Positions 5,432 to 19,767 of a stretch of 64,000 nt of DNA are shown here, one piece after another. The translations under genes and the position numbers were made by a program. Location of the stretch: positions 3,694,001 through 3,758,000 of the forward strand of contig NZ_CP017024.1 of NCBI RefSeq assembly GCF_014522265.1, in the 5' to 3' direction. The number at the start of each line of letters is the position of its first letter. Within the stretch, counting starts at the first letter, position 1. Below the pieces are notes generated by a model, which had not been told where the DNA came from, searched no databases, and saw only the letters and a program-made list of their open reading frames with translations. Origin of the DNA: Pseudomonas oryzihabitans. Its GTDB lineage: Bacteria > Pseudomonadota > Gammaproteobacteria > Pseudomonadales > Pseudomonadaceae.

Positions 5432-5475
5432 AGCGTTCGCCAAGCGCGAACGCTGCGTTGGCCAAAGGTCAATTT
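5432..5475 (+). promoter_or_regulatory. Repeated operator-like element, copy 1 (upstream of lactonase)
   Basis: Begins with AGCGTTCGC, then seven unconserved bases, GAACGCTGCGTTGGCCA, five bases and CAATTT. AGCGTTC and GAACGCT form a perfect dyad. The same arrangement with the same spacing recurs on the opposite strand at 19604-19647 in front of the aconitase paralogue (about 36 of 44 positions identical by eye). It ends 97 bases before the lactonase start. The dyad size fits a LysR- or TetR-type operator; the regulator is not identified. Confidence 0.6.
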
Positions 5476-5571
5476 TCGCTGGGCAGCGGGTTGCCTAAGG
5501 TGGCGCAAGCAGGTCGGACGTTCGCCGTGGCGCGGACGTCGGACCCTTCCAGCCGGTGCCAGGAGAGCCCT

Positions 5572-6614
5572 ATGTACGCCTATGTCGGCAGCCGAACCAC
5601 CCGTGCCCGCCAGGCCCGCGGGAGGGGATCAGCGTTTACCGGGTCACGCCCGCAGGCGCGCTGGAACTCGTCCAGGTGGTCGGCGACCTGATCAATCCGT
5701 CCTACCTGACCCTCAATCGGGCGGGTGACCGTCTCTATACGGTGCATGGCGACGAACAGGCGGTCAGCGCCTTCGCCGTCGACCGCCAGAGCGGTTGCCT
5801 AACCCTGCTCAACCGGCAAGCCAGCGGCGGTCGCAATCCCGTGCACCTGGCGCTGGCGCCGGACGATCGCCATCTGGTGGTGAGCAATCACCTCGGTCGC
5901 AGTCTCGCGGTACTGCCGGTGACCCTGGATGGCCGGTTGGAGCCGCTGGTCCAGCTGCTGGAGCTGCAGGGCGAACCCGGGCCGCACCGCCAGGAACAGC
6001 CCCATGCCAAGCCCCACTGCAATCCCTTCGACCCCAGTGGCCGCTTCGTGCTGGTGCCGGACAAGGGGTTGGACCGGATCTTCAGCTTCGCCTTTCACGA
6101 CGGACGCCTGGTGCCAGTGGCCGAGGTGGCGACCCGCGAAGGCGCGGGGCCGCGGCATCTGGTCTGCCATCCGCACCTGCCGCGGGCCTATGTGGTCAAC
6201 GAGCTGGATTCGACCCTCACCACCTATGCCTTCGCTGCCCGTTCCGGTGTCCTCGAACCCCTGGCCATCCACTCGACGCTGCCGGCCAGCTTCACCGGCA
6301 ATAGCCGGGCAGCGGCCATCGAACTGGATCGCAGCGGGCGTCTGCTCTACACCTCCAATCGCGGTCACGACAGCCTGATGGTCTTCACGCTGGATCCCCG
6401 GAGCGGGCTGCCCACGCCGCTCGGCAGCCTGGCGAGCGGTGGCCGCACGCCACGCGCCTTCGCCCTGGCGCCGGATGGCCGCCAGCTGTTCGCCCTCAAC
6501 GAAGACAGCGACAGCATCGTCACCTTCCTGGTCGACGAGACCCGGGGAATCCTCGAACCCACCGGCACGGCGGTGCGCTGCGGCAGCCCGGTGTGCCTGA
6601 TCTTCAGCCGCTGA
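5572..6614 (+). pseudogene. Lactonase, 7-bladed beta-propeller (PGL type), frameshifted
   Basis: Lactonase of the 6-phosphogluconolactonase (YbhE/Pgl)/muconate-cycloisomerase-like propeller family, about 347 aa if repaired. The ATG at 5572 follows AGGAGA and gives MYAYVGSRTTRARQARG; the rest of the protein (GISVYRVTPAG onwards) is in another frame. One base, most simply a G in the GGGAGGGG tract at 5620-5626, is missing. The repeated blades are visible as PSYLTLN..GDRLYTVH, HLALAPDDRHLVVSN, NPFDPSGRFVLVPDKG, RHLVCHP and ALAPDGRQLFALNE. It would open a sugar-acid or other lactone. It begins a new unit with the MFS permease behind the repeated element at 5432-5475. Sequencing error is the likeliest reason for the break. 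Confidence 0.85.
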
Positions 6615-6677
6615 AGATCGTCGCCGCATCCCATAACAACAAGATCGGCCGCCCCGTTGCGGCCCTGTGAGGCCATC

Positions 6678-7993
6678 ATGAACACCACCCCCGTGAGCCG
6701 GGACCAGGCCATCATCCGCAAGGTGACCTGGCGCATCATCCCCTTCGTCTTCCTGCTCTACATCGTCTCCTATCTGGATCGGGCCAACATCGGCTACGCG
6801 GCGTTGCAGATGAACGCCGAGCTGGCGCTGTCCAGCGAAGTGTTCGGCTTCGTCTCGGGTATCTTCTTCATCGGCTACTTCCTGTTCGAGGTGCCGAGCA
6901 ACCTCCTGCTCGAACGCTTTGGCGCGCGGGTGTGGATCGCGCGCATCCTGCTCACCTGGGGGGTGATCGCCGCGGCCACGGCCTTCGCCCAGACCGCCAT
7001 GCACCTCTATATCCTGCGCTTTCTGCTGGGGGTGGCCGAGGCGGGTTTCTTTCCCGGAATCATCGTCTACCTGACCTACTGGTTCCGCTCACGCGAACTG
7101 GCCACCACGGTGGCACTCTTCACCGCGGCGATCCCGGTGTCCTACGTCATCGGCGCGCCGCTCTCGACCTGGATCATGGACAACGTCCACTGGTTGGGCT
7201 GGAGCGGTTGGCGCTGGATGCTGTTTCTCGAAGGCATCCCGGCGGTGTTCCTCGGAGTGCTGTGCTATCTCTACCTCACCGATCGGCCCGAACAGGCACG
7301 CTGGCTGGCAGATGAAGAAAAGGTCTGGCTGCTCGCCGAGCTGGAGCGAGATCGCCAGGCGCGCAAGGACGTCAGGCATTTCGGCGCGCTCAAGGCCATG
7401 AGCAATCCCAAGGTGCTCTACCTGGCCTTCATCTACTTCGTCTACCAGTGCGGCAGCCTGGGTGTGGGTTACTGGATGCCGCAGATCATCAAGGGCTTCT
7501 CCTCCGCGCTCAGCCATACCCAGATCGGTCTGATCGCCACCATTCCCTACATCGTCGCCACCCTGGTGATGATCGCCTGGTCGCGACGTTCGGATCGCCA
7601 CGGCGAACGGCGTCTGCACTCGGCCTTACCGCTGGCGGTCGCGGCGGTGGCGCTGGTGGGGCCGGACTGGTGCGCGATCCCTACCTGGCGATCGGCTTGA
7701 TCAGCCTGGCGCTGGCCGGTCTGTACAGCTTCAAGTCGCCGTTCTGGGCGCTACCGACGCTGTTTCTCAGCCGCTCCACGGCCGCGGTATCCATCGCCGT
7801 GATCAATTCCATTGGCAACCTGGGCGGCTTTGTCGGACCCTTCATGATCGGCATGGTGAAGGGCAATACCCAGAGCGCCTCGGCGGGCCTGCTGTTTCTC
7901 AGTGCGCTGCTGGCGATCGCCTTCATCATGACCCTGCTGATCCGTCTCGACCGTGGCGACGACGATACCCGCGCCGCTGCGGCCACCACCTGA
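6678..7993 (+). pseudogene. MFS transporter, anion:cation symporter (ACS) type, frameshifted
   Basis: Inner-membrane permease of the major facilitator superfamily with 12 expected helices, about 438 aa if repaired. The N-terminal segment WRIIPFVFLLYIVSYLDRANIGYA is typical of the ACS group (tartrate, phthalate, glucarate and hexuronate permeases), as are LGVAEAGFFPG and the KGFSSALSHTQIG region. The reading frame breaks at the GGGG run 7658-7661: adding one G restores VALVGAGLVRDPYLAIG and the last helices (SIGNLGGFVGPFMIG). Start is the ATG at 6678. It follows the lactonase by 63 bases, so the pair probably imports and opens an acid sugar or its lactone. Likely a homopolymer sequencing error. 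Confidence 0.87.
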
Positions 7994-8011: not shown

Positions 8012-8746
8012 ATGACCCCCAGCTCAGCGGTACTCGCGGACCTCGCCCCCCAGGGCGCGCTACGGACGGCGATCAACTACGGTAATCCGGTGCTGGCGCA
8101 GCGTGGCGCCGATGGCCAGCCGGCCGGGGTCTCCGCGGCCCTGGCCCACGCCCTGGCCGAGCGTCTGGGCGTGCCCGTGCAGTTCAGCACCTACGACGCC
8201 GCCGGCAAGGTCTTCGCCGCCCTCGAAGACGACGCCTGGGACCTGGCCTTCCTGGCCATCGAACCGGTACGGGCGGCGCAGATCGACTTCAGCCATCCCT
8301 ACGTCATCATCGAGGGCACCTATCTGCTGCGGGACGCCGATCCCGCTCAGGGCGTCGCCGAGCTGGACCGGGCTGGCCGCCGTATCGCCGTGGGGCAGGG
8401 CGCCGCCTACGACCTCTACCTGAGCCGTACCCTGACCCAGGCCGAGCTGGTGCGGGCGCCGACCTCGGCAGCCGCCGTGGACTGGTTCGTCGACCAGGGC
8501 CTGGACGCCGCCGCCGGCGTGCGCCAACCGCTGGAGGCCTATGCCCGGGCTCACGCCGGCTACCGGGTGCTGGCCGACAGCTTCACCGAGATCCGTCAGG
8601 CCATGGCCGTGCCCAAGGGGCGTAGCGCTGGTGCGGCCTTCGTCCGGGATTTTCTCGACGAGCAGATCCGCAACGGCTTCGTCGCCCGCGAGCTGGCCGC
8701 CAGCGGTCAGTCCGAGGCACGAGTGGGACCGGCACTGGGCAGCTGA
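8012..8746 (+). CDS. Family-3 solute-binding-like protein lacking a signal peptide
   Basis: A 244-aa protein with the amino-acid-type periplasmic binding fold: LRTAINYGNPVLAQ at the first strand, WDLAFLAIEPVRAAQIDFSHPYVIIEGTYLL in the middle and VDWFVDQGLDAAAGVR later. Normal ABC binding proteins of this family are exported, but the start (MTPSSAVLADLAPQGALRTAIN, strong GGAG site at the ATG 8012) has no hydrophobic leader. It is therefore expected in the cytoplasm, where such proteins can act as cyclohexadienyl-dehydratase-like enzymes or ligand sensors. It is the last gene of the lactonase-MFS unit, 18 bases after the permease. Whether it binds, senses or dehydrates the substrate is unknown. 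Confidence 0.82.
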   Translation: MTPSSAVLADLAPQGALRTAINYGNPVLAQRGADGQPAGVSAALAHALAERLGVPVQFSTYDAAGKVFAALEDDAWDLAFLAIEPVRAAQIDFSHPYVIIEGTYLLRDADPAQGVAELDRAGRRIAVGQGAAYDLYLSRTLTQAELVRAPTSAAAVDWFVDQGLDAAAGVRQPLEAYARAHAGYRVLADSFTEIRQAMAVPKGRSAGAAFVRDFLDEQIRNGFVARELAASGQSEARVGPALGS

Positions 8747-9927: not shown

Positions 9928-10824
9928 TCAGGGGCGCAGATGACCGACGAAGGCCTTGGCTACCGGTGACAGCGCGCTATAGCGCCGCACCACTACGACG
10001 ATGGCGCGACTGGCCCAGGCTTCGTCCAGTTCCAGGGCCACCAGTTTCATCGGCTTGAGATAGGGCCGCACGATGGACTCGGGCAGTACGCACAGGCCCA
10101 GGCGAATCGCCGCCAGCCGGCACATGGCCTCGAAGCTGCTGATGCGCACGCGTTGACGGATGCCGCGCTGGAGCAGCGCCGCCTGGCGCGAGAGCAGGGC
10201 GTTCATCGAGCTTTCCACGTGGGGGCCGATGAATTCGTGGTCCAGGGTCTCGGCGAAGCTTACCCGGTCACGCCCGGCCAGGGGGTGATCCGCAGCGGCG
10301 ATCACCACCAGTCGCTCGCGGCGATAGGCGAAGGTCTCCAGGTCCAGGGCGGCGGTATCGGCCGCGACGATGCCCACGTCCGCCCGGCCTTCCGCGACCG
10401 CCTGGACGATGCTGCCACCCACCCGCTCCTCGATGTCGAAATCGACCCGCGGATAGAGGCCCATGAAGCTGGCGAGATCGGGAGTCAGGTGGTTGGTCAG
10501 CGCCGAGGTGATGGCTTGCAGGCGGATATGGCCGGTGGCGCCGCTGCCGTGCTCGTTGAGCTCCAGCTGCATGAGTCGCAGATCGCCATGCACCCGCTCC
10601 ACATAGTGCAGCATGGTCTCGCCGGCCGGGGTGAGTCCCATGCCACGGGCGTGCCGGATGAACAGTGGCACCCCGACCTGGTCTTCCAGTTCGCTGATTC
10701 TCTTGCTCACGGCGGAGACGGCCAGATGGCAGAGCCGCGCGGCGCGGGTGACGTTGCGCTCCTGGGCCACCGCCCGGAAGACGTTCAGGCTGACCAGATC
10801 GTAGCGTGGCGCAGAGCCGCTCAT
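9928..10824 (-). CDS. LysR-family transcriptional regulator
   Basis: A 298-aa LTTR. Residues 1-65 hold the winged helix (LVSLNVFRAVAQERNVTRAARLCHLAVSAVSKRISELEDQVGVPLFIRH), followed by a linker helix and an effector domain starting at IRLQAITSALTNHL. The ATG at 10824 has AGGAT upstream and is preferred over an in-frame start five codons earlier. It sits 18 bases after the repaired stop of the DUF1537 kinase and before the AbrB-type gene. LysR proteins usually control a neighbouring operon with an organic-acid effector; a dyad such as the one at 5432-5475 and 19604-19647 is a plausible target, but this is inference. Confidence 0.9.
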   Translation of the reverse strand: MSGSAPRYDLVSLNVFRAVAQERNVTRAARLCHLAVSAVSKRISELEDQVGVPLFIRHARGMGLTPAGETMLHYVERVHGDLRLMQLELNEHGSGATGHIRLQAITSALTNHLTPDLASFMGLYPRVDFDIEERVGGSIVQAVAEGRADVGIVAADTAALDLETFAYRRERLVVIAAADHPLAGRDRVSFAETLDHEFIGPHVESSMNALLSRQAALLQRGIRQRVRISSFEAMCRLAAIRLGLCVLPESIVRPYLKPMKLVALELDEAWASRAIVVVVRRYSALSPVAKAFVGHLRP

Positions 10825-10842
10825 GGGCGATCCTTGCAAGGG

Positions 10843-12113
10843 TCAGGGGGCGACGGCCAGGGCCCGTTCGAAGAAGTCCGGCGTGCCGAAATTGCCGGAT
10901 TTGAGCGCCAGGGCGATGGCCCCCGGGCGCCGCTGCCCAGCGTCCAGGGTACGCCCGGGGCGATGGGCGCACCGATGCGCAGACTGTCAATGGCAAGCGC
11001 CTTGACCACTGCGCCCGAGGTTTCGCCGCCAGCCACTACCAGCCGGGTCACACCGCCTTCGTGCAGGCCCTGGGCGATGCGGGCCAGGGCGTCTTCCACC
11101 AGTTGGCCGGCGCGCTCCACGCCCAGCTGGGCCTGGGCCTTGCGCACCTCCGCGGGATCGGCGCTGCCATAGATGAGTACTGGCTCGGAAGGCAGTCGCG
11201 CTGCGGCCCACTCCAGGGCAGCGCCGACCTGATCCTCGCCTGCGGCCAGGGCCAGCGGATCGAGGCGAAAGCCAGGCCGGTGCTCTAGCCAGAGGGCCAC
11301 CTGGCCACGGGTCGCGGTGGAACAGCTGCCCGACAGCACGGCAGCCAGACCGGGCGCAGCCGGTAGGGCTGACGCTTCGGCATGGGCGGCCAGCAGACCC
11401 CGGCGACGGAAGTTGGCCGGCAGCCCCAGAGCCACGCCGGAACCGCCGGTGACGAGAGGATGATCCGCCACGGCTGCGCCTATGGCATGCAGATCGGCGT
11501 TGTCGATGGCGTCGACGATGACATGGCGGACGCCCTGCGCCTGGAGGTCGGCCAGGGCGGTGGCAATGGCTGCGCTGCCCTGGCGCACCTGGGGCAGGCG
11601 CAGCAGGCCCACGGAATGGGACGTCTGCGCCTGCAGCACCCGCACCAGATTGCTGTCGGTCATGGGTGTCAGCGGATGGTGGCGCATGCCCGACTCGGCC
11701 AGGGGCTGGTCGCCGACGAACAGCTGGCCGAGGTAGAGGGTTCGACCGTTTTCGGGGAAGGCGGGGCAGACGATGCTCAGGCGCGCACCGAGGGCCTCGG
11801 CCAGGGCATCGGCGCCCGGTCCGATGTTGCCGGCCGCGGTGGAATCGAAGGTGGAACAATACTTGAAGAAGAATTGCCGACATCCCAGCTCGCGCAGATA
11901 GGCCAGGGCCGCCAGGGACTGCGCGACCGCTTCGGCAGCGGGCAGGGTACGGGTCTTGAGGGCGACCACCACGGCATCGGCGTCGCTGGGCAGCGGACGG
12001 TCCGGCACGCCCAGTACCTGAACGGTGCGCATGCCCTGGGCCACCAGGGTGCTGGCGAGGTCGGTACCGCCGGTGAAGTCGTCGGCGATGCAGCCCAGGA
12101 GCGGCGTGGCCAT
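10843..12113 (-). pseudogene. DUF1537 four-carbon acid-sugar kinase family, frameshifted near the C-terminus
   Basis: Member of the kinase family that phosphorylates tetronates and 3-oxo-tetronates (OtnK, DtnK, LtnK types), about 423 aa if repaired. The ATG at 12113 follows AGGAGA. The N-terminal substrate motif CIADDFTGGTDLAS is clear, as are SIVCPAFPENGRTLY, VVSGSCS-like AVLSGSCSTATRGQV and the nucleotide-binding GGETSGAVV. The frame breaks at the GCCCGGGGG tract (10918-10926): one extra C restores the family C-terminus GAIALALKSGNFG and a stop at 10843-10845. It is 67 bases after the dehydrogenase gene. Kinases of this family normally work with an epimerase, aldolase or dehydrogenase; here the partner would be the isopropylmalate-type enzyme, an unusual pairing. 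Confidence 0.87.
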
Positions 12114-12180
12114 GGTGGTTCTCCTTGTTGTTATCCGGGATGACCGGGGCGCGCACACCCCGGGAGACGCGGGTATGGCC

Positions 12181-13251
12181 TTAGCCGCGCAGGACCTGGG
12201 CCACCGCCTGGCCGAAGGCGGCGCAGCCCAGGCTGCCGCCCAGGTCGGCCGTCCGCTTGGCCGGATCTTCCAGTACCTTGTCCACCGCCTGGTCAATCGC
12301 CGCGGCCGCTTCCTGCAGCTTGGCGTTGCCGCGGTGCTCGCCCATCCAGTGCAGCATCATGCCGATGGACAGGATCATCGACACCGGGTTGGCCTTGTCC
12401 TGGCCGGCGATGTCCGGTGCCGAGCCGTGCTGGGCCTGGGCGCAGCAGTGGATGTTGCTGGCCATGATCGAGCCGGCCAGGCCCAGGCTGCCGGAGAGTT
12501 CGCTGGCCAGGTCGCTGATGATGTCGCCATAGAAATTGGTGGCCACCAGCACGTCGAAGCGCTCGGGGTTGCGCACCAGGTGCGCGGTGGAGGCGTCCAC
12601 CAGCAGGTCGTCCAGCTGCACCTCGGGGAATTCCTTGGCCACGTTGCGCACGCATTCCAGGAAAAGGCCATCGGTCATGTGGAAGCTATTGGCCTTGTGG
12701 ATGGCGGTGACCTTGCGGCGCCGTTTCATGGCCAGTTCAAAGGCCTGGCGGGCGATGCGCTCGCTGCAGTGGCGAGTGATCTTGCGGGTCGACAGCGCCA
12801 TGTCCGGCGAGGGCATCACCTCGCCCCAGCCGCGGCTCATGTTGCGATCCGGATAGAAGCCCTCGGTGGCCTCGCGCATGATCACCAGGTCCATGCTCTT
12901 GCCTTCCTTCATGTTGGAGGCGAGGAAGGATCTGGTGCGCGCCGGGCGCACGTTGGCATAGAGATCGAGGCCGATACGAAAGCCAGCGGAGACGTTGCGA
13001 CCGCCTTTCTCGGGCGCCGGGTAGTCGGCATGGGACTGGGTGCCGAGGATCACGCCATCGTAGGTCTTGGCCTTTTCCAGGGTCTCGTCGCGCAGGGTAA
13101 CGCCGTGCTTCTCCAGGCTGGTGAAGCCGACGTCGTCGTAATCGAAGGTCAATCCCAGGCCGAATTTTTCGTTGGCGACATCCAGCACGGACATGGACGC
13201 CTGGATGATTTCGGGACCGATACCGTCGCAGGGCAGGACCAGAATACGCAT
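12181..13251 (-). CDS. Isocitrate/isopropylmalate-type beta-decarboxylating dehydrogenase
   Basis: A 356-aa NAD(P)-dependent dehydrogenase that oxidises and usually decarboxylates 2-hydroxy-3-carboxy acids. Seen are the start LVLPCDGIGPEII, the substrate-binding series VRPARTR and LVIMREATEGFYPD, the catalytic Lys in VTAIHKANSFH, and the metal-binding Asp in VATNFYGDIISDLASELSGSLG. The last part (HGSAPDIAGQDKANPVSMILS) carries the cofactor site. The tartrate dehydrogenase and 3-isopropylmalate dehydrogenase groups are closest by eye. It has its own upstream region containing an ATTGT-18-ACAAT-like element at 13329-13356, and leads into the DUF1537 kinase gene. With the aconitase paralogue it could form a hydratase/decarboxylating-dehydrogenase pair acting on a citrate-like acid. 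Confidence 0.9.
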   Translation of the reverse strand: MRILVLPCDGIGPEIIQASMSVLDVANEKFGLGLTFDYDDVGFTSLEKHGVTLRDETLEKAKTYDGVILGTQSHADYPAPEKGGRNVSAGFRIGLDLYANVRPARTRSFLASNMKEGKSMDLVIMREATEGFYPDRNMSRGWGEVMPSPDMALSTRKITRHCSERIARQAFELAMKRRRKVTAIHKANSFHMTDGLFLECVRNVAKEFPEVQLDDLLVDASTAHLVRNPERFDVLVATNFYGDIISDLASELSGSLGLAGSIMASNIHCCAQAQHGSAPDIAGQDKANPVSMILSIGMMLHWMGEHRGNAKLQEAAAAIDQAVDKVLEDPAKRTADLGGSLGCAAFGQAVAQVLRG

Positions 13252-13476: not shown

Positions 13477-14397
13477 TCAGGCGGGCTGCTTTGCCGCATC
13501 TTCTTCGGCGGCTTCGAGCTGGCGATCTTGGGCGGCCTTGAGCCGGCTGACCACGTCGAGATGCTGGTGCAGGAACAGCGCCGCCTCTTCACGACTGCCG
13601 CCTTCGAGCAGGTCGAGGATGTGCAGGTGTTCCTGGCTCTGGCCGATCTGCCGCGAGCGTTCGACGTTGGAGCGATAGGCCATGAAGCGGCGCAACTGAT
13701 TCTGCCGGCGGATGGCTTCGAGCAGGAAGACGTTGCCCGAGCAGCGCACCAGCAATTCGTGGAAGCTGGAGCCGATCTCGAACAGCTGCGCGCGGGACAG
13801 GGTGAAGAGCTCGCCGTCCAGCAATCGTTGCTGCCACTGGCGCGCCTGGGCGAAGGCGCGCTTGTCGATGCGGTAGCCCGGCTCGCGCAGGGCGAAGGGC
13901 TCGATGGCCATGCGGAAGCGATAGCTCTGGATATGGGCTTCGCTGTCATGCAGGAAGGTATTGATCTCCCACCCCTGGCCAGGGCGGCGCTCGATCATGG
14001 CCTCGCTGGCCAGGCGATTGAGCACCTTGAGCAACTGGCCGCGGGGAATCTGGTAGCGGCGCAGCAACTCGGCCTCGAAGAAGCTGCTGCGGATATCGCC
14101 CCGCAGCATGTCGTCCACCACCCGCAGATAGAGCTCCTCGTAGGGATCGTCCTCGCTGGGCAGGGCCGCCTGCTCGATGGTGCTGGCATTACGGGTCAGG
14201 AAGAAGCCGCGATTGGGCTCCTTGCGCGCCAGGCCCAGTTCTTCGAGAAGGGCAAAACCGCGGCGCACCGGTGAGCGGGAAACGCCCAGTTCCTTGGCGA
14301 AGGCCTCTTCGCGCAACGGATCACCGGCTTTCATCGAGCGGGCACGGGCAAGATCGATGATGCGCGGGGCGAGTTGTTCGGCGAGGTCTTTTTTCAT
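13477..14397 (-). CDS. GntR-family regulator with two winged-helix domains and FCD-like effector domain
   Basis: A 306-aa cytoplasmic DNA-binding regulator. Residues 1-68 are a standard GntR winged helix (LREEAFAKELGVSRSPVRRGFALLEELGLARKEPNRGFFL). Residues about 85-145 form a second winged-helix-like domain (YEELYLRVVDDMLRGDIRSSFFEAELLRRYQIPRGQLLKVLNRL...PGQGW). An all-helical FCD-like domain with His ligands (SSFHELLVRCSGN, HLHILDLLEGG, LFLHQHLD) follows. The ATG at 14397 is where homology begins. It lies between CitMHS and dehydrogenase genes and probably senses the acid substrate. It is the prime candidate for the long elements at 13329, 16754 and 19668. Confidence 0.88.
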   Translation of the reverse strand: MKKDLAEQLAPRIIDLARARSMKAGDPLREEAFAKELGVSRSPVRRGFALLEELGLARKEPNRGFFLTRNASTIEQAALPSEDDPYEELYLRVVDDMLRGDIRSSFFEAELLRRYQIPRGQLLKVLNRLASEAMIERRPGQGWEINTFLHDSEAHIQSYRFRMAIEPFALREPGYRIDKRAFAQARQWQQRLLDGELFTLSRAQLFEIGSSFHELLVRCSGNVFLLEAIRRQNQLRRFMAYRSNVERSRQIGQSQEHLHILDLLEGGSREEAALFLHQHLDVVSRLKAAQDRQLEAAEEDAAKQPA

Positions 14398-14538
14398 CGG
14401 GAGTCTTCTGGACGACGGGTACCGGAGCGCAGGTACGGAAGAGGCTGGCCAGCCGGGTCTGGCGGATCGCCCTGACGTTACCATAACCACGGCCATCCGG
14501 AGCGGGCGACGGCGCCGGACACACCGTCGCCGGGGCCG

Positions 14539-15876
14539 TCAGCGGGCCGAGTAGAGCGGGAACAGGCCGAGGGCCATGGAGACCGCCATGAGCAGAAAGC
14601 TCAGGGCGAACGCCCATTTCATGGTGTATTTCTGGTGGTCGCTGAACTCCACCCCGGCCAGGCCTACCAGCAGATAGGTAGAGGCCACCAGCGGACTGAG
14701 CAGGTGCACGGGCTGCCCGATCAGCGAAGCCCTGCCGATCTCTGCCGCACCGATGCCATAGGCCTCGGCCGCGTGGGCCAGCACCGGCAGTACGCCATAG
14801 TAGAAGGCGTCGTTGGACATGAAGAAGGTACCGGGGATGCTCAGCAGCGCGGTGATGGGCGCCAGGTAGTTGCCCCAGCTTTCCGGCAGGGCCCAGAGCA
14901 GCGAGCCGGACATCGCCTTGACCATGCCGGTCCCGGATAGGATGCCGGCGAAGATGCCGGCGGCGATGAAGATCGAGATCTGCGTCAGGGCTGCGGGTGC
15001 GTGGGCCGAAATACGCCGCCGCTGTTCGTCCATCTGCCGGTAGTTGATGGTCAGGGCGATGCAGAACGCGACCATGAACAGGATCGGCAGCGGCAGCAGT
15101 TCGATCACCAGGCAGGTCATCAGCGCCAGGGTCAGAAGGGCGTTGAACCAGAACAGCTTGGGCCGGCGCAATTCGGCGTTTTCATCGCTCAGGGTGAGCA
15201 GATCACCCATGTCTTCATCCATACCCGTGGCGCGTAGGGGATTACCGCCCGGCGCCGTCAGCAGGCCTAGGCGTCGGCGCTCCTGCAGCCCCAGCCAGAA
15301 CGCCAACGCCAGTACCCCGATGAAGCTGACGATCATCGGCGGGATCAGCGGGATGAACAGCTGGCTGGTTTCCACCTGCAGTGCGGCGGCGACCCGCGCC
15401 ATGGGGCCGCTCCAGGGCAGCAGGTTGGTGACACTGGCAGCGAGGATGACCACGCAGGGCAGGATCAGCGGATTCAGCCGCAAACGGCGGAACAGCGGCA
15501 GCATGGCGGTCAGGGTGATCATGTAGGTGGTGGAACCGTCGCCATCCAGGGACACCATGCCGGCCAGCAGGGTGGCGAAGAGCACCGCCTTGGCCGGATC
15601 GCCCTTGATCAGCTTGATGAAGGTGCGAATGATGGGATCGAACAGCCCGGTATCGAACATCAGGCCGAAATAGAGGATGGCGAACATCACCATGATGGCA
15701 GTGGGCGCAACCTTGCGCAGGCCATCGATCATCATCGGGCCCATCTCCGGCGCGAAGCCGCCGATGATGGCGAAGATGATGGGGATGATGGTCAAGGCCA
15801 CCAAGGGCGGCAGCCGCTTGGTCATGATCAGCGCCATGAAGGTCACGATCATTCCATAGCCGAGCAGAGAGAGCAT
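14539..15876 (-). CDS. CitMHS-family citrate/divalent-metal:H+ symporter
   Basis: A 445-aa inner-membrane carrier with 11-12 hydrophobic segments. Recognisable CitMHS stretches are MTKRLPPLVALTIIPIIFAIIGG, VMFAILYFGLMFDTGLFDPIIR, LDGDGSTTYMIT and LLPWSGPMARVAAAL. Family members import citrate or similar tricarboxylates as complexes with Mg2+ or Ca2+. The ATG at 15876 is preceded by AGGAGATACAG, which decides the start against a longer frame. It stands between the SDR and GntR genes in the minus-strand series. Together with the aconitase paralogue it is the strongest clue that the island's substrate is a citrate-like polycarboxylate. Confidence 0.92.
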   Translation of the reverse strand: MLSLLGYGMIVTFMALIMTKRLPPLVALTIIPIIFAIIGGFAPEMGPMMIDGLRKVAPTAIMVMFAILYFGLMFDTGLFDPIIRTFIKLIKGDPAKAVLFATLLAGMVSLDGDGSTTYMITLTAMLPLFRRLRLNPLILPCVVILAASVTNLLPWSGPMARVAAALQVETSQLFIPLIPPMIVSFIGVLALAFWLGLQERRRLGLLTAPGGNPLRATGMDEDMGDLLTLSDENAELRRPKLFWFNALLTLALMTCLVIELLPLPILFMVAFCIALTINYRQMDEQRRRISAHAPAALTQISIFIAAGIFAGILSGTGMVKAMSGSLLWALPESWGNYLAPITALLSIPGTFFMSNDAFYYGVLPVLAHAAEAYGIGAAEIGRASLIGQPVHLLSPLVASTYLLVGLAGVEFSDHQKYTMKWAFALSFLLMAVSMALGLFPLYSAR

Positions 15877-15944
15877 CTGTATCTCCTGATTCCAAAATAC
15901 AACTTTTGTTGTGGTTGTCGTTGTGTTCGGTGGCGGAGTAGCGA

Positions 15945-16688
15945 TCAGCTCATGTGAAGGCCGCCATTGAGGGAGAAGTCCGCGCCGGTGGCGAAGGCCG
16001 ATTCGTCCGACGCCAGCCAGGAGCACATGGAGGCGATCTCTTCCGGCGTACCCAGGCGGCGCATCGGAATTTCATGAACGATGCGATCCATCTGCTCGGT
16101 CCGGGTGAGCGCCTTGAGCCGTGGCGTGGCGATGTAACCCGGCGAGACGGTATTGACCGTGACGCCGCGGGCTGCCAGCTCACGGGCCAGGGCCCGGGTG
16201 AAGCCGCGGATCGCCGACTTGGCGGTGGAATAGTTGACCTGGCCGACCTGACCGAGCTGGGCGTTGACCGACGAGATGTTGATGATCCGGCCCCAGCCGC
16301 GGGAGGTCATGCCGTCGATCACCTGCCGGGTGACGTTGAACAGCGAGTTGAGATTGGTATCGATGACGGTCTGCCAGTCACCCGGTTGCATGTCGCGGAA
16401 CACCACGTTGCAGGCGGTACCGGCGTTGTTGACCAGCACATCGACGGAGCCGACCTCGTCGCGAATCTTGGCGAAGGCCGCCCGGGTGGATTCCCAGTCG
16501 GCCACGTTGCCTTCGGCGGCGATGAAGTCGAAGCCCAGCTTGCGTTGCTGTGCGAGCCAGTCGGTCTTGAGCGACGAGTCCGGGCCACAGCCGGCGATGA
16601 CGGTGAAGCCATCCCGAGCCAGGCGTTGGCAGACGGCGGTTCCCAATCCGCCCATGCCGGCGGTAACGAAGGCGATGCGCTTGCTCAT
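15945..16688 (-). CDS. Short-chain dehydrogenase/reductase, acetoacetyl-CoA reductase (PhbB) type
   Basis: A 247-aa NAD(P)-dependent oxidoreductase. The Rossmann nucleotide motif is VTAGMGGLGTAV (residues 8-19, a variant of TGxxxGxG); NNAG is at 87-90. The catalytic set Asn112, Ser140, Tyr153 and Lys157 is complete (NISSVNAQLGQVGQVNYSTAK). PhbB-like features are the GWGRIINISSVN stretch and SPGYIATP. The ATG at 16688 follows GGAGAGCAATAC. A transcription start is likely directly upstream because a hairpin (16821-16842) and an ATTGT-18-ACAAT site (16754-16781) separate it from the aconitase paralogue. It probably reduces a 3-oxo or oxidises a 3-hydroxy intermediate. Confidence 0.9.
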   Translation of the reverse strand: MSKRIAFVTAGMGGLGTAVCQRLARDGFTVIAGCGPDSSLKTDWLAQQRKLGFDFIAAEGNVADWESTRAAFAKIRDEVGSVDVLVNNAGTACNVVFRDMQPGDWQTVIDTNLNSLFNVTRQVIDGMTSRGWGRIINISSVNAQLGQVGQVNYSTAKSAIRGFTRALARELAARGVTVNTVSPGYIATPRLKALTRTEQMDRIVHEIPMRRLGTPEEIASMCSWLASDESAFATGADFSLNGGLHMS

Positions 16689-16753
16689 GTATTGCTCTCC
16701 TGTTGTCGTTCTTGTCGGGCGTGAGCCATGTAAGGCACGGTAAGACGAATCCA

Positions 16754-16781
16754 ATTGTCTTGTAAATACACAAAATACAAT
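16754..16781. promoter_or_regulatory. ATTGT-18-ACAAT operator candidate (SDR promoter)
   Basis: ATTGT (16754-16758) and ACAAT (16777-16781) are perfect inverted half sites separated by 18 bases; inside are TTGTA and ACAAAAT. It lies 66 bases before the SDR start. The ten-base string CAAAATACAA inside it recurs at 15893-15902 just upstream of the CitMHS gene. Equivalent sites are at 19668 and 13329. Confidence 0.55.
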
Positions 16782-16847: not shown

Positions 16848-19535
16848 TCAACTCCCTTGTTCGCCGAGGCTCTTGCGGATCACATAGGGCAGGATGCCGC
16901 CCTGACACAGGTAGAGCAGCTCCTGGCTGGAATCCAGCGGCAGTTCGAGGGCCACGCTGTCACTCCGGCCGTCCGGACGGATGATCTGCAGCGTGATGGA
17001 ATTGATCCCTACCCGCAGTTCATCCAGGCCAGCGAAGTCCAGGCGCTCGTCGCCGGTCAGACACAGGCTCTCGGCGGTTTGCCCGGCCGGGAAGCGCACT
17101 GGAAAGATGCCCATGCCGATCAGGTTGCTGCGGTGGATCCGCTCGAAGCTCTGCGCCACCACCAGCCTGACGCCCAGGGTGGCCTGGGCCTTGGCCGCCC
17201 AGTCGCGACTGGAGCCGGCGCCATAGTTGATGCCGGCGAACACCACCAGCGGCGTGCCTTGGCGGACCCAGCTGAGGGCGGCGTCGTATACCGGCAATAC
17301 CTCGCCGTCGGCTGCTCGCGCCCAGCCGCCCTGGCCCGGATGCGCCGGCAGCAGGCGATTCTTCACCGCGCGGTTGACGAAGGCACCGCGCATCATCACC
17401 TCGTGATTGCTGCGCCGGGTCGAGTATTGATTGAGGTCTTCCGGCGCCTCGCCATGGTCCACCAGCCAGCGACCGGCCGGGCTCTCCAGGGGAATGGCAC
17501 TGGCGGGCGAGATGTGGTCGGTGGTGATGTTGTCGCCCAGCACCATCAGCGCCCGGGCGTCGCGCACGGCCAGCGACGCCGGCGGCTCCGGGGTTATGCC
17601 CTGCAGATAGATCGGACGGCGCAGATAGGTCGAGCTTGGCGACCAGGGAAAGCGCACGCTGCCCTCGGCCGACAACGCCTGCCAATGGTGGCTGCCGTCC
17701 CAGAGGGTGGCGTTGCGCTGGCGGAACAGTTCGGGCCGCACCGTTGCGCGAACCAGGGCCTGGACTTCGTCATCGTCCGGCATCAGGTCGCGCAGGTAGA
17801 CCGGCTGCCCGGTTTGGTCCAGGCCCAGCGCGGCCTGTTCGAGATCGACGTCGATGCTGCCGGCGAGGGCATAGGCGACCACCAGAGCCGGCGAGGCCAG
17901 GTAGCCGAACTGCGCCTTGGGATTGACCCGGCCTTCGAAATTGCGATTGCCCGAAAGTACCACCACCGTCTTCAGGCCCTGGTCGGCGAAGGCCTCTACA
18001 TGGGCTTCGAAGGTGCCCGAGTTGCCGATGCAGGTCATGCAGCCGAAGCCGGCCAGCTCGAAGCCGAGCGCGGCGAAGTCGCTCAGCAGATCGGCTTCAC
18101 CCAGATAATCGGCCACCACCCGGGAGCCGGGTGAGAGCGAGGTCTTCACCCAGGGCTTGCGGGTCAGGCCGCGCATCCGTGCTCGTCGCGCCAGCAGCCC
18201 GGCCTGGATCATCTGGCTCGGATTGGCAGTGTTGGTGCAACTGGTGATGGCGGCGATGGAGATGGCGCCGTGGGTCAATGGCTGGCCAAAACTCGGCTCG
18301 AAGTAATCCGCTGCGGCTTGGCTGGAGCGGGCGATCAGTGCCGCAGCCGGTTCGGCGCGGAGCTCGGCGCGAAAGGAGTTGGCGGCTTCAGCCAGTGGCT
18401 GCCACTGGTGCGGCTGGTGCGGGCCAGCCACGCTGGGCTCTATGCTGGCGAGGTCCAGATGAATGACCTCGGTGAAAACCGGTTCGGGATCTCCGTCGTG
18501 GCGCCATAACGTTTGGGCCTCCAGGTAGGCGGCTACCCGCTCGCGCAGCTCGGGGCTGCGGCCGGTGAGCGCCAGATATTCCATGGTGACGGCATCGAAC
18601 GGAAAGAACACCACGGTCGCGCCGTATTCCGGCGCCATGTTGGCCAGGGTGCCGCGGGCGGCCCAGCTCAGGCCCGACAGCCCCGGCCCGCAGAATTCGA
18701 CGAACTTGCCCACCACGCCGCGCTGACGCAGCAACTGGGTGACTTTCAAGGAAAGGTCGGTGGCAGTCACTCCCGGACGCAGCGCGTTGGTCACGCGGAT
18801 ACCGATGACCTCGGGAAAGCTGATCGGTACCGGTTCGCCCAGCATGGCCGCCTGGCCTTCCAGACCGCCGACGCCCCAACCCAGGATGCCGATGGCATTG
18901 ATCATCGGTGTATGGCTGTCGGTGGCGACCATGCCATCCGGGTGCAGCAGCGGCTGGCCGTCACTGGTCTCGCTCTCCCAGACCACGGTGCCCAAGGACT
19001 CCATGTTGACCTGGTGGATGATGCCGGTGCCTGGTGGCACCACCTTGAAGTTGTCCAGGCTCTTCTGTGCCCACTTGATGAACTGGTAGCGCTCGGTGTT
19101 GCGGCGATAGTCGATGTCCAGATTGGCTTCCACCGCACCTGGCTCGGCGAAGCGCTCGACGATCACCGAGTGATCGATGGTCAGCACCGCCGGGATGCGC
19201 GGATTCATCCGGCTCGGATCGCCGCCCAGTTCGGCCACCATGTCGCGCATGCCGGCGAAGTCGGCCAGGGCGGGCAGGCAGGTGGTGTCATGGAACATCA
19301 GGCGGTTGGGCAGGAAGGGCGCCTCGCATGGCGGGCCTTCACCGCGGGCCCGGGCCAGCACCGGCGGTAGCGCCTCGGGAAAGCAGCGGGCGACGTTTTC
19401 CACCAGCAGGCGCAGGGAATAGGGCAGGCGGGCCAGGGCGTCGGCGTCGAACAGGCGCTTGAGATCGGCATAGGCGTACTGCCGGTCACCGAGGGTGAGC
19501 TGGCCGGTATAGGCGGAATCCAGGGCAAACTTCAT
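16848..19535 (-). CDS. Aconitase-family hydratase (AcnA-like paralogue)
   Basis: An 895-aa hydro-lyase of the AcnA/IRP-type aconitase family, distinct from the housekeeping acnA at 31860. The 4Fe-4S cysteines are present in ITSCTNT and GFGCMTCIGNSG (the two Cys of CxxC). Also present are DHSVIVERF, VVPPGTGIIHQVNMESLG, DSHTPMINAIG, SGNRNFEGRVNPKAQFG and SSRDWAAKA. Unlike housekeeping AcnA, the sequence after NRNFEGRV diverges and the N-terminus is family-specific (MKFALDSAY). It likely isomerises a citrate-like acid through an aconitate-like intermediate. It heads the minus-strand series, with both repeated regulatory elements (19604-19647 and 19668-19695) in its upstream region. Plain aconitase activity is an alternative. 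Confidence 0.9.
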   Translation of the reverse strand: MKFALDSAYTGQLTLGDRQYAYADLKRLFDADALARLPYSLRLLVENVARCFPEALPPVLARARGEGPPCEAPFLPNRLMFHDTTCLPALADFAGMRDMVAELGGDPSRMNPRIPAVLTIDHSVIVERFAEPGAVEANLDIDYRRNTERYQFIKWAQKSLDNFKVVPPGTGIIHQVNMESLGTVVWESETSDGQPLLHPDGMVATDSHTPMINAIGILGWGVGGLEGQAAMLGEPVPISFPEVIGIRVTNALRPGVTATDLSLKVTQLLRQRGVVGKFVEFCGPGLSGLSWAARGTLANMAPEYGATVVFFPFDAVTMEYLALTGRSPELRERVAAYLEAQTLWRHDGDPEPVFTEVIHLDLASIEPSVAGPHQPHQWQPLAEAANSFRAELRAEPAAALIARSSQAAADYFEPSFGQPLTHGAISIAAITSCTNTANPSQMIQAGLLARRARMRGLTRKPWVKTSLSPGSRVVADYLGEADLLSDFAALGFELAGFGCMTCIGNSGTFEAHVEAFADQGLKTVVVLSGNRNFEGRVNPKAQFGYLASPALVVAYALAGSIDVDLEQAALGLDQTGQPVYLRDLMPDDDEVQALVRATVRPELFRQRNATLWDGSHHWQALSAEGSVRFPWSPSSTYLRRPIYLQGITPEPPASLAVRDARALMVLGDNITTDHISPASAIPLESPAGRWLVDHGEAPEDLNQYSTRRSNHEVMMRGAFVNRAVKNRLLPAHPGQGGWARAADGEVLPVYDAALSWVRQGTPLVVFAGINYGAGSSRDWAAKAQATLGVRLVVAQSFERIHRSNLIGMGIFPVRFPAGQTAESLCLTGDERLDFAGLDELRVGINSITLQIIRPDGRSDSVALELPLDSSQELLYLCQGGILPYVIRKSLGEQGS

Positions 19536-19603
19536 GGGCTATCCGGTCCAATTGCGAGAAGGTAGAGAGGTAGGGGAATGCTAGGAGAGCCGGCATCACC
19601 CAG

Positions 19604-19647
19604 AAATTGGTATCTGGCCAACGCAGCGTTCTCGGTCCGCGAACGCT
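19604..19647 (-). promoter_or_regulatory. Repeated operator-like element, copy 2 (upstream of aconitase paralogue)
   Basis: Minus-strand copy of the element at 5432-5475: AGCGTTCGC, seven unconserved bases, GAACGCTGCGTTGGCCA, five bases, CAATTT. It ends 69 bases before the aconitase-paralogue start. Identical spacing in two otherwise unrelated upstream regions, each in the same orientation to its gene, points to a shared regulator. Confidence 0.6.
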
Positions 19648-19667
19648 GGATTTCAGGCTTGGCAAAT

Positions 19668-19695
19668 ATTGTTCTGTATTGATATAAAAGACAAT
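19668..19695. promoter_or_regulatory. ATTGT-18-ACAAT operator candidate (aconitase/TerC intergenic region)
   Basis: ATTGT and ACAAT are separated by exactly 18 bases; the dyad extends to AATATTGT and ACAATATT (19665-19698). Aligned with the site at 16754 it shares TGTA after the first half and AAAA before the second. It lies between the divergent aconitase-paralogue and TerC genes and could serve both. Confidence 0.55.
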
Positions 19696-19767
19696 ATTAA
19701 TGACCTGAAATCATTGCGGGCCGCTGCTGCCCAAGGGACGTCAGCCCCCAAATAGACGAGGTCCACC

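What the first reader, a model, noticed from the sequence alone, without database searches (positions are those of the whole stretch)
5432..5475. Same long operator-like element in front of the lactonase-MFS unit and of the aconitase paralogue (copy at 19604-19647)
AGCGTTCGC, seven free bases, GAACGCTGCGTTGGCCA, five free bases and CAATTT occur at both places with identical spacing and in the same orientation relative to the downstream gene (97 and 69 bases from the starts). By my hand alignment about 36 of 44 positions agree. The core includes a perfect dyad. This links genes 14 kb apart and suggests one regulator, perhaps the LysR protein at 9928-10824 inside the island. I know of no described motif of this form.
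Basis: partly seen in the sequence, partly recalled or inferred. Interest (0 to 1): 0.72.

Follow-up and report, generated by a model that had tools for sequence, protein, structure and literature searches.

The report
Shared LysR-type operator-promoter, tricarboxylate gene module
Two near-identical control sites stand before two gene groups that in relatives form one cluster, probably for using a citrate-like acid, and the same site sits before the same genes in other Pseudomonas and in Pantoea plasmids, mostly next to the gene of the protein that most likely binds it.

Summary
The 44-base element occurs as described at 5432-5475 (+) and 19604-19647 (-), 36 of 44 positions agree, and no other good copy exists in the 5.05 Mb genome. 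It has the layout of a LysR-type operator plus core promoter: a GTTC-N9-GAAC dyad, a second dyad TTG-N9-CAA 22 bp further on, then a -10-like hexamer at a fixed distance, placing the two centres at about -65 and -43. In its genus 5 of 13 genomes have the element, always as this pair, and exactly those 5 carry the LysR at 9928-10839. In the wider family, 12 of 13 loci with a more distant homologue of this LysR (49-55% identical) have the same site within 90 bp. There the usual order is LysR, site, aconitase, lactonase: one cluster, which the window's lineage has split, with a site on each half. Two Pantoea plasmids carry the site before acnA amid the same genes. The kind of element is classical; this motif, regulon and module were not found described in the library searched. 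Binding, inducer and substrate are untested. Caveat: in a tree the window's LysR joins a paralogue with no site beside it.

The parts
5432..5454 (+). copy 1, recognition site (RBS): AGCGTTC-N9-GAACGCT, contains T-N11-A, centre 5443
   Evidence: aligned with 23 other sites
5458..5472 (+). copy 1, activation site (ABS): TTG-N9-CAA, second T-N11-A dyad, centre 5465
5473..5478 (+). copy 1, weak -35-like hexamer at the ABS edge, 17 bp from the -10
   Evidence: its first three T 24 of 24 each; assignment inferred
5496..5501 (+). copy 1, -10-like hexamer TAAGGT; inferred +1 at 5508
   Evidence: first T 24 of 24, second-position A 23 of 24, last T 24 of 24; A at the +1 column 20 of 24
19625..19647 (-). 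copy 2, recognition site (RBS), centre 19636
19607..19621 (-). copy 2, activation site (ABS) TTG-N9-CAA, centre 19614
19578..19583 (-). copy 2, -10-like hexamer TAGCAT; inferred +1 at 19571
9928..10839 (-). LysR-type regulator, proposed to bind both copies
   Evidence: Pfam HTH_1 and LysR_substrate
5556..6614 (+). 7-bladed lactonase reading frame, first gene under copy 1; frame change near its 5' end (probable ATG 5572)
   Evidence: Pfam Lactonase
6657..7993 (+). MFS transporter, in two overlapping frames here
8012..8746 (+). SBP_bac_3-fold protein, no signal peptide seen by eye (possible enzyme)
16848..19535 (-). aconitase paralogue (AcnA type), first gene under copy 2
15945..16754 (-). SDR dehydrogenase following the aconitase
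14539..16026 (-). CitMHS citrate-type transporter
13477..14496 (-). GntR/FCD regulator (rival or co-regulator)
12181..13251 (-). isocitrate/isopropylmalate-type dehydrogenase
10821..12296 (-). 3-oxo-tetronate-kinase-type protein

Best explanation
Each copy is a LysR-type (LTTR) operator fused to a sigma-70-type core promoter. Shown by sequence: a strong dyad GTTC-N9-GAAC and a weaker dyad TTG-N9-CAA, 22 bp apart, followed at constant distance by a -10-like hexamer, so that with an inferred start the centres lie at about -65 and -43; this layout is conserved before aconitase-lactonase units in several genera of the family and before acnA on two Pantoea plasmids, beside or near one group of LysR genes. 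Inferred: a pair of dimers of the LysR at 9928-10839 binds both dyads, and a tricarboxylate-like inducer shifts the second contact so that RNA polymerase can use the weak -35, switching on lactonase-MFS-SBP3 and aconitase-SDR-CitMHS and the genes after them together. The two copies exist because an ancestral single cluster (LysR, site, aconitase, lactonase, MFS, SBP3) was split in this lineage and each half has a copy.
For: Exact pair, none elsewhere in the genome. Genus: 5 of 13 genomes have the element, two copies each, the same 5 that have the LysR at 96-100% identity; the other 8 have 32-40% matches (5 genomes) or none (3). Family: 17 of 398 genomes have this LysR at E<=1e-80, giving 13 loci in 12 genomes outside the genus; 12 of the 13 carry a <=3-mismatch site 14-29 bp from the LysR match, G321 a second one at 87 bp, against a mean of 0.005 of 13 loci (largest 1) in 200 first-order random sequences and 0 of 18 other LysR loci, all of these from the window's genus. 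Three of the sites (G020, G062, G280) were already listed by the motif scan made before that LysR search. Columns that were not in the search pattern are sharp too: TTT after CAA and A at index 32 24 of 24, -10 first and last T 24 of 24, +1 A 20 of 24. Site, aconitase, lactonase in that order in 11 of 12 relatives' loci. Two Pantoea plasmids: best site 4 and 3 mismatches of 36, next best 13, just before acnA. A 26-residue HTH stretch of the window LysR is 18-24 of 26 identical to the site-linked LysRs, 8-13 of 26 to the other paralogues aligned. A site-linked LysR finds the window LysR best in its genome (324 bits, next 213). T-N11-A, RBS near -65 and a 50-60 bp RBS/ABS target are the LTTR norm (passages of PMC8407307).
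Against: No binding or expression data. In the tree the window LysR joins the second LysR of genome G024 (98/95, with a long-branch warning), which has no such site beside it, nor near it in a whole-genome scan at up to 2 mismatches, and has the dehydrogenase, kinase and AbrB neighbours as in the window; its HTH stretch (17 of 26) is only just below the lowest site-linked one (18 of 26). The island comes and goes as a whole, so genus co-occurrence does not single out the LysR. The start site is inferred; the -10 of copy 1 (TAAGGT) is poor. One of the 24 sites (G064) overlaps an ORF with a transposase DNA-binding domain and has only a fragment-sized LysR match nearby. The short pattern at up to 3 mismatches matched somewhere in 137 of 298 genomes, and the reversed control also matched in many. 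Choosing sites by pattern inflates conservation of the pattern's own letters. Of 9 LysR homologue loci outside the family, 5 show no site.
Confidence: 0.85

Rival explanations
1. The element is the operator of the GntR/FCD regulator (13477-14496), or of another regulator, and the LysR is only a neighbour.
For: A GntR gene is in the island and in both Pantoea modules opened. The relatives' loci were chosen by their LysR, so the presence of a LysR in all of them is by design.
Against: A strong match to the island's GntR (463-478 bits) lies in only 3 of the 12 relatives' loci as fetched, 17-19 kb each, although the site is there in all 12; the two-dyad layout at -65/-43 is that of LysR proteins; 12 of 13 LysR loci have the site against 0 of 18 other LysR loci. 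Whether the GntR lies elsewhere in those genomes was not tested.
Confidence: 0.06
2. The cognate regulator is a LysR paralogue that the window's lineage has lost; the LysR at 9928-10839 serves other genes and the two sites are relics or are served by a distant paralogue.
For: Tree placement with the site-less second LysR of G024 and similar neighbours, IsoDH, kinase, LysR, AbrB.
Against: Both sites and their -10 hexamers are kept in all 5 genomes of the genus that have them, which relics would hardly be; the next-best LysR in these 5 genomes is at most 41% identical to the site-linked LysR used as query, and the aligned paralogues of the genus have a different HTH stretch.
Confidence: 0.08
3. 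The dyad is the transcription terminator of the LysR gene (or another RNA structure), conserved for that reason.
For: In the relatives it lies just after the LysR coding region.
Against: In the window neither copy follows the LysR; in the two Pantoea records it precedes acnA while the LysR lies on the far side of acnA; no T run directly follows the dyad, whereas -10 and +1 columns are conserved. No RNA folding was run.
Confidence: 0.01
4. A dispersed repeat or a recent duplication without function.
For: Two copies in one genome.
Against: Only two in 5 Mb; the ungapped repeat is 44 nt at 82%; conserved across genera and in another order.
Confidence: 0.01

Closest known systems
LysR-type RBS/ABS operators in general (e.g. 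of BsrA, BenM, CbnR)
   Same: T-N11-A dyad near -65, second site next to -35 (norms as in passages of PMC8407307)
   Different: Here both dyads, the linker letters and the -10 distance are kept across genera, and in the window two copies serve the two parts of a split cluster, with the regulator gene inside one of them
CcpC (Bacillus), with CcpE (Staphylococcus): LysR regulators of the aconitase gene citB
   Same: LysR protein, aconitase gene as target, dyad centred at -66 with a second element near -27, citrate as signal (passages of PMC8514465)
   Different: CcpC boxes are ATAA/TTAT/TATT and it represses a TCA-cycle gene; here an aconitase paralogue in an island, different boxes; relation of the proteins beyond the LysR family not tested
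TarR-tarAB of Bacillus velezensis (LysR activator of trans-aconitate uptake and isomerisation)
   Same: LysR plus MFS transporter for a tricarboxylate (passages of PMC11495376)
   Different: TarR boxes are TTATAA; TarA is a PrpF-type isomerase, not among the Pfam matches of the window ORFs scanned; the tar operon as described in the passages is tarA and tarB only

Membership tests
LysR-type operator (RBS/ABS) | interrupted dyad containing T-N11-A | tested here: met
   GTTC-N9-GAAC and TTG-N9-CAA in both copies; in the 24 aligned sites GTTC and GAAC 24 of 24, first T of TTG 17 of 24, its second T 24 of 24, G 22 of 24, CAA 24 of 24
LysR-type operator (RBS/ABS) | RBS centre near -65 and ABS next to -35 | tested here: met
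   constant offset to conserved -10 and +1 columns in 24 sites; the start is inferred, not mapped
LysR-type operator (RBS/ABS) | linked to a LysR gene | tested here: met
LysR-type operator (RBS/ABS) | bound by that LysR over 50-60 bp, inducer-dependent | not testable with these tools
   needs gel shift and footprint
LysR-type operator (RBS/ABS) | window LysR is the orthologue of the site-linked LysRs | tested here: inconclusive
   best hit in its genome for a site-linked LysR, but the tree joins it to a site-less paralogue
CcpC/CcpE citB regulation | ATAA/TTAT boxes | tested here: not met
   boxes here are GTTC/GAAC and TTG/CAA
TarR-tarAB trans-aconitate system | PrpF-type aconitate isomerase in the operon | tested here: not met
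   no such Pfam match among the 20 window ORFs scanned
Dispersed repeat | many copies, not tied to promoters | tested here: not met
   two good copies only

The most novel reading that the evidence does not exclude
An undescribed LysR regulon, on chromosomes of Pseudomonas and relatives and on Pantoea plasmids, that controls a dedicated catabolic pathway for a plant tricarboxylic acid or its lactone (trans-aconitate, hydroxycitrate or isocitrate lactone are candidates), built on an aconitase paralogue, a propeller lactonase and a cytosolic enzyme derived from a solute-binding protein; its operator is so constrained that it can be used to find the pathway in other genomes.
Probability: 0.5. Interest if true: 0.58.

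Novelty: new member of a known kind. Interest (0 to 1): 0.43.

Why it matters
It gives a searchable 44-base signature with a named candidate regulator for a conserved but unassigned gene module, and it shows a gene cluster being split with an operator-promoter on both halves. The module's substrate becomes testable: the inducer of this LysR should be the substrate or an early product.

Tried and rejected
Literature by motif letters gave listings of unrelated papers and by spaced notation nothing; searches combining aconitase, lactonase, LysR, CitMHS, Pantoea and the like listed no paper that by title or abstract start describes this regulon (listings seen only, apart from passages of PMC11495376). 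In the P. aeruginosa SELEX atlas PMC8041468 no word begins with GTTC or GAAC in the main text; its motif figures and supplements were not seen, so it may hold a related motif.

Considered and rejected: a sigma-54 site (spacing does not fit, by eye); dispersed repeat; LysR terminator (see rivals). The dyad read backwards towards the TerC gene (from 19626, 3 mismatches) has 5 mismatches in the four related genomes, so it was dropped; it was left out of the 24 sites. That the SBP_bac_3-type protein is an aconitate isomerase is only a lead recalled from Yuhara 2015 (strain WU-0701), whose text and sequence I did not see (title seen in reference lists). Hydroxycitrate as substrate found no support.

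Rows and choices: the 16 loci were picked by hand from the hits. One search aligned 57 rows, many of them the same gene from overlapping loci; the tree used 27 of them. One search left out the LysRs of L098 and L106 after one search failed. Outside the family, 9 LysR loci in 8 genomes of 369 searched were scanned: 2 have a recognisable site by the LysR (L115 4, L116 5 mismatches of 23), 2 are doubtful (L114 7, L121 8), 5 have none; no shuffle control was run at these loose thresholds. Of 6 plasmid records with a homologue, 3 were opened and 2 scanned; the Halomonas record bears no usable annotation and was not scanned. The 18 control LysR loci include orthologues of one another, and two of them (L019, L020) have a 5-mismatch variant beside the LysR (where only L016-L020 of the 18 were scanned at 5).

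Full report
Observation. 36 of 44 positions agree, the core dyad has perfect 7-bp arms in both copies, 100 shuffles of the window give no match, and the genome holds no third good copy. Copy 1 precedes a lactonase, an MFS transporter and an SBP_bac_3-fold protein; copy 2 precedes an AcnA-type aconitase, an SDR, a CitMHS transporter, a GntR regulator, an isocitrate/isopropylmalate-type dehydrogenase, a 3-oxo-tetronate-kinase-type protein, the LysR and an AbrB permease.

Anatomy. Positions 4-20 of the element are GTTC-N9-GAAC and positions 27-41 are TTG-N9-CAA: two dyads that each contain T-N11-A, 22 bp apart centre to centre. In both copies a -10-like hexamer follows CAATTT after 20 bases (TAAGGT at 5496-5501; TAGCAT at 19583-19578). 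With the start placed 7 bases further on, the dyads are centred at about -65 and -43, the usual region of the recognition and activation sites of LysR proteins (passages of PMC8407307).

Genus. Of 13 genomes searched (own included), 5 have the element, two copies each, 14-18 kb apart. The LysR is found at 96-100% identity in those same 5; of the other 8, five have matches of 32-40% and three none at E<=1e-30. Because the island comes and goes together, this alone does not single out the LysR.

Family. A scan of 298 genomes with the pattern at up to 3 mismatches is noisy: 137 match somewhere, and the reversed control also matches in many (not counted). But among the listed hits were places directly beside LysR genes, in G020, G062 and G280 (seen). 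A separate protein search of 398 genomes found the LysR at E<=1e-80 in 17: the 5 above plus 13 loci of 49-55% identity in 12 genomes. Twelve of these 13 have the site 14-29 bp from the LysR match, G321 having a second on the other side at 87 bp; the one without is the second LysR of G024. In 200 sets of first-order random sequences a mean of 0.005 of 13 loci matched, at most 1; of 18 loci of other LysR genes, from the window's genus, none matched.

Footprint. Twenty-four sites were aligned: 10 from the genus, 13 from the 12 relatives, 1 from G064. Letters of the search pattern are conserved in part because sites were chosen by them. Positions outside the pattern are sharp too: the TTT after CAA 24 of 24, A at index 32 24 of 24, first and last T of the -10 24 of 24, its second-position A 23 of 24, the +1 A 20 of 24. 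The ten columns before the element carry at most 0.28 bits, apart from one of 0.68. The two bases that extend the inner arms (index 7 and 15) are complementary in 16 of 24 sites (6 G/C, 10 T/A) and not in 8, among them all 5 aconitase copies of the genus; so this extension is only loosely symmetric.

Cluster history. In 11 of the 12 relatives' loci the order is LysR, site, aconitase, lactonase (in L096 the lactonase is cut by the end of the stretch); an MFS match follows in 9 of the 11 and an SBP_bac_3-type match in 10. In G280 (L107) the site precedes the lactonase with no aconitase between; a partial aconitase match lies some 4 kb away in the other direction. In the window's genus the aconitase and the lactonase-MFS-SBP3 group stand apart in opposite directions, each with its own copy. 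The simplest account is that one cluster was split and an operator-promoter kept on, or copied to, both parts (inference).

Beyond the family. Five Pantoea agglomerans plasmids and a Halomonas plasmid hold a LysR of 45-46% identity to that of G020. The two Pantoea records opened carry MFS, SBP-type, acnA, LysR, lactonase, a phbB-named SDR, CitMHS and GntR, and the best site in each (4 and 3 mismatches of 36, next best 13) lies just before acnA. There the LysR gene is on the other side of acnA, so the site goes with the promoter and is not a LysR terminator. In 9 LysR loci outside the family, 2 have a recognisable site, 2 a doubtful one and 5 none.

Which regulator. For the LysR: the site beside 12 of 13 homologues, genus co-occurrence, best hit in the reverse search (324-326 bits in the 5 genomes, next 221 or less there), and an HTH stretch 18-24 of 26 identical to site-linked LysRs against 8-13 of 26 for the other paralogues aligned. 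The relatives' loci were chosen by their LysR, so its presence in each is no independent count. Against certainty: a tree of 27 LysR rows joins the window LysR to the second LysR of G024 (98/95), which has no site near it and 17 of 26 in that stretch; the tree program itself warns of long branches meeting. A strong match to the GntR is present in 3 of the 12 relatives' loci as fetched.

Function. An aconitase paralogue, a lactonase, a citrate-type transporter and an MFS transporter point to uptake and breakdown of a citrate-like acid or its lactone (inference); the two Pantoea records come from flour and apple leaf. G321's second site precedes an OprD-type porin, a TPP enzyme and an aldehyde dehydrogenase. 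Two known LysR systems work alike: CcpC on aconitase and TarR on trans-aconitate assimilation. Neither shares the boxes, and membership in either is not claimed. The substrate is unknown.

Verdict. A well-conserved LysR-type operator-promoter, not found described in the library searched, ordinary in kind; the regulon and its pathway look new.

Noticed in passing
window 5556-6614 and 6657-7993 (+): The lactonase and the MFS transporter reading frames are each interrupted by a frame change in this genome; unbroken copies exist in related genomes. Sequencing error and decay cannot be told apart here.
   Followed up: partly
window 8012-8746 (+): SBP_bac_3-fold protein with no signal peptide visible; best solved relatives are cyclohexadienyl dehydratases: possibly a cytosolic enzyme derived from a solute-binding protein, co-conserved with the aconitase and lactonase.
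   Followed up: partly
L019, L020, L082, L087, L089, L091, L092: A sister LysR group (HTH ...SPAA...) has beside its gene a variant of the element, roughly GGCGTTC-N9-GAACGCCGGCTTA-N3-AAATGCAAATTCTC; in L086, L088 and L093 the variant stands without such a LysR match in reach. The window's genome has a LysR of this group at G000:C1:3855931 (L025).
   Followed up: partly
L098 10896-15687: In G321 a second site faces away from the LysR towards an OprD porin, a TPP enzyme and an aldehyde dehydrogenase.
   Followed up: no
L141 (G024:C2:421861-421902): G024 has a second, weaker site (2 mismatches) about 6 kb from its aconitase site, and a variant-type one at C1:342762.
   Followed up: no
L108 11424-11463: The G064 site overlaps an ORF with a transposase DNA-binding domain; a fragment-sized LysR match lies beyond it and a sugar-transporter-type gene follows the site: perhaps a cluster broken by an insertion.
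   Followed up: no
L130, L131: More distant LysR homologues in another family lie beside aconitase-superfamily ORFs of 473 aa and isopropylmalate-dehydrogenase-type genes, so the group may generally go with such enzymes.
   Followed up: no
window 19662-19699: AT-rich stretch with AATATTG...CAATATT-like repeats between copy 2 and the divergent TerC gene, seen also beside the copy-2 sites of the four related genomes.
   Followed up: no
window 5513-5547: Imperfect inverted repeat, GGTCGGACGTTCGCC...GGCGCGGACGTCGGACC, between the inferred start and the lactonase.
   Followed up: no
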